The notes beneath the pieces are model-generated. The model saw only the letters and a list, made by a program, of their open reading frames with translations, made no database searches and was not told the origin of the DNA. From positions 1 to 53,821 of IMG/VR virus record IMGVR_UViG_3300038713_000166: DNA of 53,821 bases; one strand, given 5' to 3'. The position numbers and the translations under genes were made by a program. The number at the start of each line of letters is the position of its first letter. Positions within the stretch are counted from its first letter, which is position 1. This document shows positions 33,913 to 45,445 of this stretch, piece by piece. The stretch comes from a virus.

Positions 33913-35798
33913 CCAACCTCGCCCCAATCATCACCTAATTCTTGGTCAACCTTACTTGGAACATTTAATTCAAGACCTTGTTCCATGATCTCTGTAATTT
34001 TATCTGCTTGTTCTTGTGAACTTATACTAAAGCAAAGTTCGTCATGCACTGTGAGCAAAGGCACTAAACCTTCGTTGTAACAATCAACCATGGCTTTCTT
34101 TGTTTGATCTGCTGCACTGCCTTGTATCAATCTATTTAATGCCTTATATGTGAAGGCTCGTCTTATACCTGGGCCATATTTCTTTTCAGCTTCTTCAAAC
34201 TTCAAGGGTTGATTATAACCAAATGTCTTTGGCTCCCACATATCAAACCTACATGATCTGCCCAATACAGTTCGTACCCTACCCATCTTTTGTGCACGTG
34301 ACATCACTTGGTCTGCAAGTTGTTTAACAAACGGAACTTTACGATGATAGGTGTCTAATAATTCATTAGCCTCTTCTAGTTTAATATCTAAAGTGTTGGC
34401 AAGTTTTTGTTTGCCCATACCATACATGATACCAAGATTAACTGTCTTAGCCTCTTTTCTAGATATGTTTGCCATATCTGCAACCATCTGATGAAAGTCA
34501 ATATCATCTTGTTGATACTGTTCAATGATATTATCCACAGTAGGATTACCTTTGTTTACGACTCCACAATAGTGAACCAATAACCTTGGCTCTTGGCTAC
34601 TATAATCAAAGCTACCCCACTTCTCGCCTTCCTCGGGTATAAACAGACCTCGAATCATTTTTTTAATCTCTGGATCTCTTGATGGTATTTGCTGAAGATT
34701 AGGGTTAGAAGAACTGAATCTACCCGTAACTGTACCACCATCATCGTTACGAAGTTGATGCAACTCACAATGTATTCGACCTTTGTAGCTATGTTTTAAT
34801 ATACTATCGATAAATGTATTGTGCGCCTTGTCTAATTCACGAAGTCTTAATACCTTAGCTGCTATAGGGTGTGGACAGTTTTGTAACCAAGCTTTTGTAA
34901 AGGATGCTTGTTTACTTACACCCGTTTCATCGTAATGAATATTATGATAATCAAATACTTTAGCTACACTTGTTGCTACCCATGGTTCTACATCTATGTT
35001 GGTATCATCTTTTATTTCTTTAAGTATTTGTTTCTTCATCGTGAGTAATTTAGTTTTAGTTTGTTCTGCCTTATCTAAATCTACTCTTACACCCTTACTT
35101 CTCATCTCAAACACACAAGGTATTAGACTTGTTTCTAATTTAAATATACTTGATAGCTCTTCTTTATTTATCAGTGGTTCAAAGTGATTCCATAATCTAA
35201 GAGTCAAAGCTGCATCTTGCTCTGCATAGGTCCCTACAAATTGTGAAGGCAGTTTCCATAATTCTTTCTTTGGATCTAATCCAAAGTCCTTAGCTGCTGA
35301 CTTTAGTACCTTTTCATCCTTGCGCTCGCCAAGGTAATCACGACCCAAGGCATTAAGTGCAAAACTAAATCTGTTTTCATTAATAAGTGGAGCAGCAATC
35401 ATCGTATCAATAATCTTGCCCTTTACATCTACGTTTGCCCACTTCAGCCACCCTGCATCATACATCGCATTGTGCATAATCTTGGGTATGTGTGGTGTAT
35501 CCATTTGTTTTTTTAGCCAAGTAAAGACTTTTTTTTCTGGTATATTACCACCACCTTGGTGCCGAAAGGGATAATATCCCACAAAATCCCCCGCTGCAAC
35601 AGCTATTCCCACGATAAACCCATCATTACGTGTCCATCCTGGACCAAGTTCCATTAAGTTTGGATCACATGTTTCTAAATCGATGGCTATGTATTTAGAA
35701 TTAGTAAGGTCTGGAAAAGATTGAGGCACTGTCCATTCTTTTTCTAACGTATTCATCTCCATACGTTCTAAGAAACTTATTGTGTTTTTATCTTTCAT
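33909..35798 (-). CDS. DNA polymerase family A with 3'-5' exonuclease
   Basis: The 629-residue replicative polymerase has an exonuclease domain (YIAIDLETCDPN near residue 40, with further Asp in IIDTMIAAPL and YAEQDAALTLRL), and palm/fingers motifs: motif A SFDYSSQEPRLL, motif B SRKEAKTVNLGIMYG, and motif C LTVHDELCFS near the C-terminus. Motif A has Ser-Gln-Glu-Pro rather than the usual Gln-Ile-Glu-Leu. ATG 35798 overlaps the stop of the upstream gene (TAATG). It is the last gene of the minus-strand replication operon. Confidence 0.95.
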   Translation of the reverse strand: MKDKNTISFLERMEMNTLEKEWTVPQSFPDLTNSKYIAIDLETCDPNLMELGPGWTRNDGFIVGIAVAAGDFVGYYPFRHQGGGNIPEKKVFTWLKKQMDTPHIPKIMHNAMYDAGWLKWANVDVKGKIIDTMIAAPLINENRFSFALNALGRDYLGERKDEKVLKSAAKDFGLDPKKELWKLPSQFVGTYAEQDAALTLRLWNHFEPLINKEELSSIFKLETSLIPCVFEMRSKGVRVDLDKAEQTKTKLLTMKKQILKEIKDDTNIDVEPWVATSVAKVFDYHNIHYDETGVSKQASFTKAWLQNCPHPIAAKVLRLRELDKAHNTFIDSILKHSYKGRIHCELHQLRNDDGGTVTGRFSSSNPNLQQIPSRDPEIKKMIRGLFIPEEGEKWGSFDYSSQEPRLLVHYCGVVNKGNPTVDNIIEQYQQDDIDFHQMVADMANISRKEAKTVNLGIMYGMGKQKLANTLDIKLEEANELLDTYHRKVPFVKQLADQVMSRAQKMGRVRTVLGRSCRFDMWEPKTFGYNQPLKFEEAEKKYGPGIRRAFTYKALNRLIQGSAADQTKKAMVDCYNEGLVPLLTVHDELCFSISSQEQADKITEIMEQGLELNVPSKVDQELGDDWGEVG

Positions 35799-36631
35799 TA
35801 CATACCACACATACCATCACACTCATCTAAGAATGATAGTTGCCCTTTCTCTTCAATTGTTTGTAAGTCAGCTTGATCTAATGGCTTTAAGGATCTGTGC
35901 ACAAATTGCTCACGTCCTTTATCTGTGCCAGTAGTTCTTATCTTTTTATTCACGGCCACCGCATCTTTCCAACCTTTAGGATCGTTGTCTCTTAAGTGTC
36001 TCCATTCATTATTGTTTTTGTATGGACAAAATGTACAAGCAGATCGTGGTAGATATTTTTCTGGATAATGTTTAGCAAACCAATTCTGACAATCATATCG
36101 TTTCATTCCTAGTTCTAACAGTGGCCATCGATTATATAACCATTTGTCTCTAGATTCTTTTACACGTTGTAGCTCGTCTTGACTTATACCTATCCATTGT
36201 TCAAGTATAACTCCTGGTTTAACTTTGTGATTCTTCTTTACACCAAGTAATTCTCTAAACTTTTTCTGTATCGGTTCTATCTTAAACTGTGTTGTACATT
36301 GTCTACGACCAAAACCATCTTTGACATGAAAAGGAACTACACAATAATCTCTGTTTGTGCCTCTAATATTTATACCTTCAGTTATACTTTTACGTAAGTC
36401 TCCTGCAGTTGTTTGGTGTATTGGGTAAGATAGTTGTGTAGATAGCCACTCAAGATGTGTGTAAACCTCATCGGGTTCTGCTTGTGTATCAGCAAATACT
36501 GCACAGTCTGGCTTAGGTGTTATCTCTCCTCGTTCTGCCATCAATGCCATGACAGAAGATTGCACACCTGCTCCTAAGCTTATGACCCTCATTGTTGGAT
36601 TAGGGTGTGGTTTGAAATAACTATTTATCAT
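35798..36631 (-). CDS. PAPS-reductase-like ATP pyrophosphatase
   Basis: The 277-residue protein carries an ATP-pyrophosphatase loop, SLGAGVQSSVMALM, near residue 20, then DCAVFADTQAEPDEVYTHL and a C-terminal Cys cluster (SACTFCPYKNNNEWRHL). It belongs to the PAPS-reductase/N-type ATP pyrophosphatase family frequent in phages, whose substrates there are mostly unknown; adenylation or sulfur chemistry on nucleotides is possible. I take ATG 36631, inside the end of the upstream gene, because it has GAAGAGA upstream; a longer in-frame start exists at 36664. Confidence 0.7.
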   Translation of the reverse strand: MINSYFKPHPNPTMRVISLGAGVQSSVMALMAERGEITPKPDCAVFADTQAEPDEVYTHLEWLSTQLSYPIHQTTAGDLRKSITEGINIRGTNRDYCVVPFHVKDGFGRRQCTTQFKIEPIQKKFRELLGVKKNHKVKPGVILEQWIGISQDELQRVKESRDKWLYNRWPLLELGMKRYDCQNWFAKHYPEKYLPRSACTFCPYKNNNEWRHLRDNDPKGWKDAVAVNKKIRTTGTDKGREQFVHRSLKPLDQADLQTIEEKGQLSFLDECDGMCGM

Positions 36632-36887
36632 CTTTCTCTTCTGCTCCAAGTGCGCCATATCCACAGATATCGACCCACGAATCTGTATGATGAGGTGTTT
36701 TCACTAAACGTGAAATCTTCAATGCCAATAAACAAAGATACACCATTCTTACAGAAACTTTAATACCTAATATTGCTGACCACATAGTAGCAACTCTTTC
36801 ATGATTTTCATAGGCATCCCCATAATCCCTTGCTCTATCGCCCGTGATAAGTTGCCCTGCTTTAGCTAGTACGTTTTCTCTCTTCAT
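36621..36887 (-). CDS. DUF6378-like protein
   Basis: This 88-residue protein contains KAGQLITGDRARDYGDAYENHERVATMWSAIL and LLALKISRLVKTPHHTDSWVDICGYGALG, which matches the small phage family DUF6378. It resembles nucleotide-pyrophosphohydrolase-like helical proteins in pattern, but no activity is established. Overlaps its neighbours by a few bases. Confidence 0.7.
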   Translation of the reverse strand: MKRENVLAKAGQLITGDRARDYGDAYENHERVATMWSAILGIKVSVRMVYLCLLALKISRLVKTPHHTDSWVDICGYGALGAEEKDDK

Positions 36888-43584: not shown

Positions 43585-44043
43585 CTAGTATGATTCTACC
43601 TCCCATCTGAACTTCATTTGGCCATAAATTGGTTGCCATTTTCTATCTCTGTCTTTACGTGACCACCCTTTACTTGGCTTGGTTTCTCCAACAATCTTCC
43701 ATCCCGATCCTTTTAAACTAGATCCCGATTCAGATTGTAAAGTGTAAGTAATCATTCTAAGTCCACCCATCTGCTGCCACACCCTCCAAGATCTACCATA
43801 TAAAAAAGAGCATGTGTTTTTTGGACTATCTTCCTTGGCGCAAACCCTTAACACTTCCATAGTAAAACCATCATTCATTAAGCGAGCTACGGGATTGCCT
43901 ATTATTGCAACCCCGACTAACTTGCCCTCGAACCCCGCACCAATTGCAAACCTACAATTTTTTACGGGATCATTGTGTCTGTGAAAGTTAAGTATAAATT
44001 CATTAGCTTCTTTTATACTTATTGGTAATGGATGTAGTTTCAA
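43585..44043 (-). CDS. XF1762-like protein
   Basis: The 152-residue protein has LHPLPISIKEANEFILNFHRHNDPV, FAIGAGFEGKLVGVAIIGNPVAR, EVLRVC and SFLYGRSWRVWQQMGG, the pattern of the XF1762 family, thought to have an acetyltransferase-like (GNAT) fold. TTG 44043 overlaps the upstream TGA (TTGA) and yields MKLHPLP as in homologues; a TTG at 44064 would add 7 residues. Substrate unknown. Confidence 0.75.
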   Translation of the reverse strand: MKLHPLPISIKEANEFILNFHRHNDPVKNCRFAIGAGFEGKLVGVAIIGNPVARLMNDGFTMEVLRVCAKEDSPKNTCSFLYGRSWRVWQQMGGLRMITYTLQSESGSSLKGSGWKIVGETKPSKGWSRKDRDRKWQPIYGQMKFRWEVESY

Positions 44044-44240
44044 GATTTCTTTACTCGAATACAATCATCTAAAATTATCTTTTGATTCTTGGGTAATTCA
44101 TAAATTCTATACCGAACTAACTTTAATTCACATTGCTGCAGAGATTCAAACTCCCACTTAAACATGTGAGTAAAGCATTGTTGTTGAGGTTCGCCATTTA
44201 TAATCCAAACACTACATATAAGAGCCATTGCTTTAAACAT
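44040..44240 (-). CDS. Small exported-type Cys-containing protein
   Basis: ATG 44240 has AGGAG 8 bases upstream and gives 66 residues: a hydrophobic start (MFKAMALICSVWII) then a short domain with Cys near residues 22, 38 and 60. Layout is like 8829-9035. It is probably exported or membrane bound. Function unknown. Confidence 0.5.
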   Translation of the reverse strand: MFKAMALICSVWIINGEPQQQCFTHMFKWEFESLQQCELKLVRYRIYELPKNQKIILDDCIRVKKS

Positions 44241-44442
44241 GCCACCAACTCCTACTGCCTTTGCCACGAATCTTTTTTATAGTAGTTTCAAATTCCTTAA
44301 TTGATTCTGTTAGATCCATAACCATATCAAGACCTAACATCACACCACGATATTCATCATCTGAAACTTTGTCCTTTGTTAATCTTATGTGTTCTTCATA
44401 TAAACATCTTAAGTGGTTAATCCTTTTTTGTGTAATCGTCAT
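44233..44442 (-). CDS. Small helical hypothetical protein
   Basis: The 69-residue product is helical (HLRCLYEEHIRLTKDKVS; VMLGLDMVMDLTESIKEFETTIKKI) with a basic tail. It overlaps the end of the methyltransferase gene by 26 bases, and AGGAGG lies before its ATG. No family recognised. Confidence 0.5.
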   Translation of the reverse strand: MTITQKRINHLRCLYEEHIRLTKDKVSDDEYRGVMLGLDMVMDLTESIKEFETTIKKIRGKGSRSWWHV

Positions 44443-45445
44443 TCATTGCCTCCTTTATTGATAATCCGATTTGCATTGCTATTTGTGGTACGATTGCATT
44501 ACCTAATCCTCTAAGTCTGTCCACCCTGGAGGGTATCCCATAAGCCACTCGACCCACATTGGGTTCAACGTCCCACCAACTTCTTGCTCGTTCTTGCGCT
44601 GATCCGTCTGTACTGCGGTTATTAAATTTACCATGTGATTCTTCTCTTGCAAGTTCTTCTCTGACCGAGGTCCTCGATTCCCGTCCCATGCATTTGGAGT
44701 TGGCCACATTCTTGTCTCCGCTACTTTTTGTCCCAATGTCGGTGATCTCGTCCCCTTTTGTACTGATGGTGGGACTATGTTTATCGAGTCCTTGTAATCC
44801 CTCGCTCTCGGTGTCGGCCAAAGAGCCATTGTCTTTTCGTCTACTTGTTCCCGAAGATTGCTCGGCTTGGCTCTGCCCTTGCGATGTCCCTCTTGAAGTT
44901 TCTTGGTTGCCTCTTCTGATCTTGGAGGCAAGTGATCCATCGTGTTCGGAGTTGCCCACAATCCAGAGTCGATCACGCTTGTGGGGTGCATTAAGGCTAC
45001 AAGCTGGTACAACAAACGTTTGTGTGGAGTAACCTTCACTTTCCATGTCGTGTAACACTTGGTCGAGACCCATGGCAATGTGACCATAAACATTCTCGAA
45101 AACACACCAAGTCGGGTGTTTTCTTTTGACAATCTCAAACACGAATCTCCAGATGTTTCTCTCATCTTCCTCGCCTCTTCGTTGTCCCGCAACGGAAAAT
45201 GGTTGGCACGGATATCCTGATGTGAGGATGTCGTGGTCGGGAATAGTTCGGGTTGATTCGGGTCGGTCATTTACTAACTCCTTTACGTCATTAAAGATCG
45301 GGATGTTCGGGAAATTTTTAGCCAGGACTTTCTGACAATACGGGTCAATCTCACAAAATGCAACGGGTTCTGAAAGTGCTGCCCAACGAAAACCGAGGGA
45401 AAATCCCCCGATCCCCGAACAGACATCAAAGTGCCTTAGCATCAT
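44417..45445 (-). CDS. DNA cytosine-5 methyltransferase
   Basis: The 342-residue enzyme has the C5-MTase motifs: I FDVCSGIGGFSLGF (residues 6-19), IV SGYPCQPFSVAG with nucleophile Cys80, VI ENV at 117-119, VIII LNAPHKRDRLWIVG, and X RLRGLGNAIVPQIA at the end. It transfers a methyl group from AdoMet to cytosine, probably protecting phage DNA. The target-recognition region (about 165-290) is Gly/Ser/Gln-rich and unusual; this stretch also encodes another protein in the +1 frame (44503-45270). No cognate nuclease gene is recognisable beside it. Confidence 0.9.
   Translation of the reverse strand: MMLRHFDVCSGIGGFSLGFRWAALSEPVAFCEIDPYCQKVLAKNFPNIPIFNDVKELVNDRPESTRTIPDHDILTSGYPCQPFSVAGQRRGEEDERNIWRFVFEIVKRKHPTWCVFENVYGHIAMGLDQVLHDMESEGYSTQTFVVPACSLNAPHKRDRLWIVGNSEHDGSLASKIRRGNQETSRGTSQGQSQAEQSSGTSRRKDNGSLADTESEGLQGLDKHSPTISTKGDEITDIGTKSSGDKNVANSKCMGRESRTSVREELAREESHGKFNNRSTDGSAQERARSWWDVEPNVGRVAYGIPSRVDRLRGLGNAIVPQIAMQIGLSIKEAMNDDYTKKD
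44503..45270 (-). CDS. W-x-T-P repeat protein encoded inside the methyltransferase gene
   Basis: This 255-residue frame lies wholly within the methyltransferase gene, shifted by one base. Its ATG is preceded by AAAGGAG with 7 bases spacing, a better site than that of the methyltransferase itself. The product has three repeats of form W(A/P)TPxxxxD at about residues 105, 151 and 189, and ends LNPMWVEWLMGYPPGWTDLE. I recognise this repeat and ending from an uncharacterised phage protein family usually associated with cytosine methyltransferase genes. Each repeat coincides with a repeat in the other frame (VGNSEHDG, LADTESEG, VANSKCMG). Function unknown. Confidence 0.65.
   Translation of the reverse strand: MTDPNQPELFPTTTSSHQDIRANHFPLRDNEEARKMRETSGDSCLRLSKENTRLGVFSRMFMVTLPWVSTKCYTTWKVKVTPHKRLLYQLVALMHPTSVIDSGLWATPNTMDHLPPRSEEATKKLQEGHRKGRAKPSNLREQVDEKTMALWPTPRARDYKDSINIVPPSVQKGTRSPTLGQKVAETRMWPTPNAWDGNRGPRSEKNLQEKNHMVNLITAVQTDQRKNEQEVGGTLNPMWVEWLMGYPPGWTDLED

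What the first reader, a model, noticed from the sequence alone, without database searches (positions are those of the whole stretch)
44503..45270. A full second gene hidden inside the cytosine methyltransferase gene
A 255-codon frame, shifted by one base, lies entirely within the C5-methyltransferase gene on the same strand. Seen directly: its ATG follows AAAGGAG at ideal spacing; the product has three W(A/P)TPxxxxD repeats and a distinctive LNPMWVEWLMGYPPGWTDLE end; each repeat falls on a repeat of the methyltransferase frame (VGNSEHDG, LADTESEG, VANSKCMG). Known: the methyltransferase frame has all catalytic motifs, so both frames look constrained. I recall W-x-T-P proteins associated with methyltransferase genes in phages, but cannot check whether they overlap likewise. 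Inference: a dual-coded pair, perhaps an accessory, target-recognition or antirestriction protein translated with its methyltransferase.
Basis: partly seen in the sequence, partly recalled or inferred. Interest (0 to 1): 0.85.

Follow-up and report, generated by a model that had tools for sequence, protein, structure and literature searches.

The report
Nested second subunit of DNA methyltransferase
A phage DNA-methylating enzyme appears to be made of two proteins written over each other in the same stretch of DNA, with the hidden protein supplying the part that the visible one lacks; this layout is known from two old bacterial enzymes but turns out here to be ancient and widespread.

Summary
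A 255-codon frame (44503-45270, minus strand) lies inside the C5-methyltransferase gene (44417-45445, minus), shifted by one base, with AAAGGAG 7 nt before its ATG. It is not chance: 0 of 1000 synonymous reshuffles of the methyltransferase keep it open, and nearly all ~220 relatives in phages and bacteria have it in the same +1 frame. Substitution counts show a hand-over of constraint. Both frames are constrained over motifs IV-VIII; between motifs VIII and IX only the hidden frame is (hidden omega 0.10, methyltransferase 0.92, i.e. neutral); after it, only the methyltransferase. The methyltransferase frame lacks motif IX; the hidden frame ends in a motif-IX-like LNPxWVEWLMG(Y/F)P. Best reading: a two-subunit C5-methyltransferase of M.EcoHK31I type. 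Alpha carries motifs I-VIII and X joined by a disordered, neutrally evolving linker; nested beta carries the recognition region (WxTP repeats) and motif IX. In one relative (L207) beta carries IX and X in one frame and alpha stops after VIII. The kind is known; the hand-over, recognition placed in beta and the breadth look new. Activity and direct homology to EcoHK31I are untested.

The parts
44417..45445 (-). alpha subunit: C5-cytosine methyltransferase ORF, 342 aa, with motifs I, IV, VI, VIII and X but no motif IX
   Evidence: Pfam DNA_methylase E=6.5e-41; NCBIfam dcm 1.7e-36; AF2 model matches the M.HhaI large domain over ~168 columns; no motif IX
44503..45270 (-). beta subunit: nested +1-frame gene, 255 aa
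   Evidence: phrog_1008 E=1.3e-30; open in the +1 frame in virtually all relatives; dNN/dNS well below 1
45278..45284 (-). Shine-Dalgarno AAAGGAG of beta, 7 nt before its ATG, inside alpha codons
   Evidence: SD of 5 or more matches in 65 of 97 loci against a mean of 27.6 (maximum 38) in synonymous permutations
45194..45217 (-). alpha motif IV GYPCQPFS (catalytic Cys); both frames are in use here
44957..44989 (-). alpha motif VIII APHKRDRLWIV; both frames constrained here
44582..44959 (-). region between motifs VIII and IX: alpha frame neutral and predicted disordered, beta frame constrained (probable target-recognition region)
   Evidence: close pairs: beta omega 0.10 (0.05-0.20), alpha omega 0.92 (0.70-1.54); alpha residues 170-278 have pLDDT below 50
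44935..44958 (-). beta repeat 1 WATPNTMD
   Evidence: T107 is invariant in 87 relatives
44797..44820 (-). beta repeat 2 WPTPRARD
   Evidence: repeat number varies 0-6 among relatives
44683..44706 (-). beta repeat 3 WPTPNAWD
44530..44568 (-). beta motif-IX-like element LNPMWVEWLMGYP, overlaid on alpha EPNVGRVAYGIPSRV
   Evidence: top-scoring canonical motif IX window in 87 of 88 betas; the only PDB profile hit is motif IX of a plant C5 methyltransferase, not significant (E=1.3)
44486..44503 (-). alpha motif X GNAIVP; its codons begin where the beta stop codon ends

Best explanation
The two frames encode the two subunits of one C5-cytosine DNA methyltransferase (M.EcoHK31I type). Alpha provides the SAM-binding and catalytic large domain (motifs I-VIII, then X). 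In place of the usual small domain it has a long disordered linker that evolves freely and serves only to keep motif X on the same chain. Beta starts at its own internal ribosome-binding site in the +1 frame, just upstream of alpha's motif IV. It encodes what alpha lacks: the region between motifs VIII and IX, built on WxTP repeats and probably the target-recognition part, plus the motif IX that packs against it. Nesting would keep the two parts co-transcribed and close to equal in amount. Shown here: the frames, conservation, start signal, hand-over of selection, and motif distribution. Inferred: heterodimer formation, DNA recognition by beta, and the need of beta for activity.
For: The +1 frame is open in nearly all relatives found with the methyltransferase as query, and every locus found with the hidden frame as query has the methyltransferase in the matching frame (over all 228 loci: 225 overlapping fully in the +1 frame, 2 partly, and 1 truncated contig without it). 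Permutation test 0/1000 for the window and p<0.05 in 100 of 101 non-redundant loci. Constraint hand-over by region: upstream, hidden omega about 1 in close pairs; region 163-288 in close pairs, hidden 0.10 and methyltransferase 0.92; after the overlap, hidden about 1; the +2 frame shows no constraint. Conserved SD and start. AF2 alpha: confident M.HhaI-like large domain, residues 170-278 and 288-305 disordered. Motif IX profile tops at LNPxWVEWLMG in 87 of 88 betas; beta outscores alpha in 99 of 101. In L207 alpha ends after motif VIII, and beta runs WxTP repeats, IX, X in one frame, the canonical order. Literature: M.EcoHK31I has motifs I-VIII and X in the larger subunit and motif IX in the smaller (PMC3404938); [quoted passage not shown]
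Against: No expression or activity data. The AF2 model of beta alone is poor (pTM 0.35) and has no fold match. A whole-profile comparison of beta with canonical methyltransferases does not align motif IX (probability 0.2), Pfam has no hit, and the PDB hit is not significant (E=1.3), so motif IX rests on a short motif, its position and L207. One family of complete methyltransferases with motif IX in frame (streptococcal phages) also carries a shorter +1 ORF over motifs IV-VIII, so the N-terminal half of beta may do something other than supply motif IX.
Confidence: 0.8

Rival explanations
1. The hidden frame is translated but is a separate accessory protein (regulator, antirestriction or other host-interaction factor) rather than a subunit of the enzyme.
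For: Beta alone has no recognisable fold or Pfam family. The N-terminal half of beta overlaps motifs IV-VIII, and a possibly related shorter +1 ORF occurs in streptococcal phage methyltransferases that keep motif IX in frame.
Against: In all loci collected, with one truncated contig excepted, beta occurs with the methyltransferase. It holds a motif-IX-like element exactly where the methyltransferase lacks it, and the methyltransferase is neutral where its recognition region should be. L207 fuses beta with motif X.
Confidence: 0.12
2. The hidden frame is reached by programmed frameshifting from the methyltransferase frame, giving a fused I-VIII/TRD/IX protein as well as, or instead of, a separate beta.
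For: Motif order across the two frames is canonical (I-VIII, TRD, IX, X). Two bacterial copies (L211, L212) have the frames joined in one ORF by an indel.
Against: A conserved SD and start at a homologous place; beta-frame constraint and openness begin well upstream of any useful shift point; a fused product would lack motif X; L211 and L212 have no motif X and L212 has a broken beta, so they look decayed.
Confidence: 0.05
3. No second protein: the +1 frame stays open by chance or by base composition.
For: Permutation tests alone can be positive in a family of related sequences (streptococcal controls).
Against: Permutation 0/1000; hidden-frame omega 0.10 with the methyltransferase frame neutral; SD conservation; the +2 frame and flanking regions behave neutrally; T4-like canonical methyltransferases L269 and L271 lack the frame.
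Confidence: 0.02
4. A homing-endonuclease insertion read out of frame, like the ShiLan element in actinophage methylases.
For: Known precedent of an out-of-frame HNH gene inside a phage methylase (PMC11855218).
Against: No HNH or other nuclease family hit; the frame is not an insertion, since it starts next to motif IV and is present in virtually all relatives instead of sporadically; the ShiLan frame differs (described as third frame).
Confidence: 0.01

Closest known systems
M.EcoHK31I (and M.EaeI), two-polypeptide C5-methyltransferases (YGGCCR)
   Same: Larger subunit with motifs I-VIII and X, motif IX in the smaller polypeptide (PMC3404938). From my own knowledge, not checked here: the beta gene lies inside the alpha gene in another frame, and M.EaeI is alike.
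   Different: PMC3404938 places the predicted target-recognition domain in the larger subunit. Here that stretch of the large subunit evolves neutrally and is predicted disordered, so recognition is placed in beta. This pair is a phage gene; no restriction enzyme was recognised among the neighbours tested. Direct sequence comparison was not possible.
M.AquI, two-subunit C5-methyltransferase
   Same: The small domain is supplied, at least in part, by a separate polypeptide.
   Different: In M.AquI the smaller subunit has both motifs IX and X (PMC3404938). The window pair keeps X in alpha. L207 is an AquI-like arrangement within the nested family.
phrog_1008 'DNA methyltransferase' (PHROGs v4)
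   Same: The hidden protein is a member (E=1.3e-30); 87 of 87 relatives match.
   Different: The label does not say that it is a nested subunit; Pfam and NCBIfam have no model for it.
'g50 internal gene' of Paenibacillus larvae phages (e.g. Redbud gp51)
   Same: Homologous frame inside the methyltransferase, annotated by depositors as an internal gene.
   Different: Annotated as hypothetical; no function proposed.
ShiLan out-of-frame HNH element (PMC11855218)
   Same: A second gene hidden out of frame in a phage methylase.
   Different: A mobile insertion encoding a nuclease; here the hidden gene is a near-universal, non-inserted part of the enzyme.

Membership tests
M.EcoHK31I-type two-subunit C5-methyltransferase | Larger subunit with motifs I-VIII and X but not IX | tested here: met
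M.EcoHK31I-type two-subunit C5-methyltransferase | Motif IX in the smaller polypeptide | tested here: met
   Motif profile tops at LNPxWVEWLMG in 87/88; L207 gives IX followed by X. Whole-profile tests were not significant.
M.EcoHK31I-type two-subunit C5-methyltransferase | Smaller gene nested in the larger in another frame (own knowledge) | tested here: met
M.EcoHK31I-type two-subunit C5-methyltransferase | Both polypeptides needed for methylation | not testable with these tools
   Needs expression and a methylation assay.
M.EcoHK31I-type two-subunit C5-methyltransferase | Sequence homology to EcoHK31I or EaeI subunits | not tested
M.AquI type | Motifs IX and X both in the smaller subunit | tested here: not met
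   Motif X is in the alpha frame in the window and in all loci scored except L207 and its copy L230.
Monomeric C5-methyltransferase (PF00145) | All motifs including IX in one chain | tested here: not met
   Pfam E=6.5e-41 for alpha, but no motif IX in the alpha frame.
phrog_1008 | Profile match of the hidden protein | tested here: met
ShiLan-like out-of-frame HNH element | HNH nuclease in a sporadic insertion | tested here: not met

The most novel reading that the evidence does not exclude
A widespread, ancient class of phage and bacterial C5-methyltransferases in which sequence recognition is carried wholly by a nested subunit built from a variable number of WxTP repeats. The catalytic subunit's frame merely tunnels through the same DNA as a neutral linker, so the coding role passes from one frame to the other and back along a single gene.
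Probability: 0.55. Interest if true: 0.75.

Novelty: new variant of a known kind. Interest (0 to 1): 0.62.

Why it matters
Annotation often calls one gene where there are two, so the probable specificity part of many phage and prophage cytosine methyltransferases goes unannotated. The data also give a clean natural case of same-strand overlapping genes in which selection hands over between frames, with a neutral-but-open stretch inside a functional enzyme gene. It suggests that the recognition domain previously predicted in the large subunit of the EcoHK31I type should be looked for in the small one. The variable WxTP repeats offer a testable source of target specificity, and one silent base change would test the whole model.

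Tried and rejected
Pfam and NCBIfam on the hidden protein and its relatives: no meaningful family. AF2 of beta alone with 86 relatives: low confidence, no PDB fold match. HH alignment of the beta profile with eight phage methyltransferases, first taken as canonical: no motif IX alignment; four of those eight lacked a recognisable in-frame motif IX and had long +1 frames, so they are probably nested types and made a poor control. L207 C-terminus (IX+X) against Pfam and PDB: no hit. Permutation test as sole evidence rejected: it is also positive in a streptococcal family, so the argument rests on substitution patterns. HNH insertion, frameshift product and chance ORF considered and rejected (see rivals). 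Literature searches for a published nested phage methyltransferase subunit found none in the held library beyond EcoHK31I mentions; the 1995 primary paper is not held. A second canonical control query (L270) found no relatives. Beta-like similarity over motifs IV-VIII between families is confounded by shared methyltransferase ancestry and was not used as evidence.

Full report
OBSERVATION. The window is a virus record of a tailed phage: terminase, portal, family A DNA polymerase. On its minus strand the C5-methyltransferase ORF runs 44417-45445 (342 aa; Pfam DNA_methylase E=6.5e-41). Inside it, offset by one base, is an open frame 44503-45270 (255 codons), with AAAGGAG 7 nt before the ATG. Permuting synonymous codons within the methyltransferase, which keeps its protein and its codon usage, never gives a +1 frame that long (mean 91.5, maximum 206 of 1000).

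DISTRIBUTION. Searching viral contigs with the hidden protein gave 599 encoding stretches; the best 80 were kept. Searching with the methyltransferase gave 60 loci. Among relatives down to about 30% identity the +1 frame is long (typically 180-400 codons) while the +2 frame is mostly far shorter. In 101 non-redundant loci the permutation p is below 0.05 in 100. A profile search of bacterial and archaeal genomes gave 274 relatives, of which 80 were fetched. Of 228 loci examined (viral, genome, annotated phage and plasmid), 225 have the hidden frame overlapping the methyltransferase in exactly the +1 frame, two overlap partly (L207, L220), and one truncated contig has no match to the hidden frame. 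No copy was found away from a methyltransferase. The family is phrog_1008, labelled DNA methyltransferase. Depositors of Paenibacillus larvae phages annotated it as an internal gene.

SELECTION. Substitutions were counted in 45 independent pairs of relatives and sorted by whether they change the methyltransferase, the hidden protein, both or neither. Upstream of the overlap the hidden frame shows little or no constraint (omega 0.76 in all pairs, 1.08 in close pairs) and the methyltransferase is constrained (0.14). Over motifs IV-VIII both are constrained (close pairs: 0.42 and 0.12). Between motif VIII and the end of the variable region (methyltransferase residues 163-288), in close pairs, the hidden frame is at 0.10 (0.05-0.20) and the methyltransferase at 0.92 (0.70-1.54), i.e. 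neutral. In the last stretch (289-314) the hidden frame is at 0.15-0.32 and the methyltransferase at 0.39-0.55. After the overlap the methyltransferase is constrained (0.21-0.29) and the hidden frame is not (0.84-1.02). The +2 frame, used as a control, shows no constraint. So the DNA changes hands: frame 0, then both, then frame +1, then both, then frame 0. The repeated VGNS/LADT/VANS motifs in the methyltransferase frame are the shadow of the WxTP codons.

TRANSLATION SIGNAL. In 65 of 97 loci a start codon near the beginning of the hidden frame has a Shine-Dalgarno match of five or more bases, often AAGGAG at 7 nt at the same aligned place; synonymous permutations give 27.6 on average and 38 at most. 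Together with constraint that begins before any useful frameshift point, this favours independent internal initiation.

WHAT THE PARTS ARE. The AF2 model of the methyltransferase frame is a confident M.HhaI-like large domain, with residues 170-278 and 288-305 at pLDDT below 50. The frame lacks motif IX; motif X (GNAIVP) follows. The hidden protein ends in LNPxWVEWLMG(Y/F)PxGWTDL, which resembles motif IX (LTPRECxRLQGFP). A motif IX scoring matrix built from canonical enzymes has its best window at that element in 87 of 88 hidden proteins, and the hidden protein outscores the methyltransferase in 99 of 101 loci; these sequences are related, so they are not independent trials. The only PDB sequences matched by the hidden-family profile are two of a DNA methyltransferase (4onq, 4onj; a plant DRM-type C5 enzyme, from my own knowledge), at this element (LEPDEVEMLLGFPKNHT), but at E=1.3. 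In L207, from a Bacillota MAG, the methyltransferase frame stops after motif VIII while the hidden frame carries WxTP repeats, the IX element and motif X in a row. In the other loci scored, motif X is in frame 0, either overlaid on the IX element (188 loci) or just after it (34 loci). Copies L211 and L212, in which an indel joins the frames, have no motif X, and L212 also has a broken hidden frame; they look decayed.

MECHANISM. The simplest reading is a heterodimer: alpha supplies the SAM-binding and catalytic domain, with motif X reached through a free linker; beta supplies the recognition region and motif IX. The motif distribution is the one reported for M.EcoHK31I, a naturally split enzyme (PMC3404938; PMC3439449). 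That source puts the predicted recognition domain in the large subunit; the neutrality of that stretch here argues instead for beta. The nesting of EcoHK31I beta inside alpha is from my own knowledge; the primary paper is not held. WxTP repeats number 0-6 per beta and beta grows with them, which would suit a modular recognition surface; this is inference.

LIMITS. No activity or expression data. The beta-alone structure model is poor. Profile-level proof of motif IX homology failed. A streptococcal phage family with motif IX in frame also carries a shorter +1 ORF over motifs IV-VIII, with reduced synonymous change there, so the N-terminal half of beta may have a role not explained here. T4-like canonical enzymes L269 and L271 have no such frame.

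VERDICT. A real dual-coded pair, most likely an EcoHK31I-type two-subunit methyltransferase. The kind is known; the constraint hand-over, the placing of recognition in beta and the breadth across phages and bacteria are new relative to what I could find.

Noticed in passing
L268, L276-L355 (streptococcal phage methyltransferases): Methyltransferases with motif IX in frame 0 also carry a +1 ORF of about 140-190 codons over motifs IV-VIII. Methyltransferase-synonymous divergence is reduced there (0.21-0.33 against 0.45-0.57 outside), so it may be a second nested gene type; weak similarity to the beta N-half is confounded by shared ancestry.
   Followed up: partly
L207:3715-5014: Variant in which alpha stops after motif VIII and the nested frame carries WxTP repeats, IX and X, an AquI-like split.
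   Followed up: yes
window 43585-44064 (-): The ORF downstream of the methyltransferase is a Mom-like DNA modification protein (phrog_1384 E=4e-35; Pfam Mom below its cut-off); a similar-looking ORF follows the methyltransferase in L207.
   Followed up: partly
window 35798-36664 (-): Phosphoadenosine phosphosulfate reductase-like gene (phrog_424); one also lies near the nested methyltransferase of Phage C72C1.
   Followed up: no
L159-L163: One Roseovarius chromosome holds five loci with identical nested methyltransferase matches; stops are reported inside the matched stretch of the hidden frame. Possible repeated prophages or assembly effect.
   Followed up: no
L211, L212: Copies where an indel joins the methyltransferase frame to the hidden frame's C-terminus and motif X is missing; probably decayed.
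   Followed up: partly
L086 (KT997847.1): A marine phage record annotates the methyltransferase N-terminal part and the hidden frame as two successive methyltransferase genes, which suggests gene callers split these loci.
   Followed up: no
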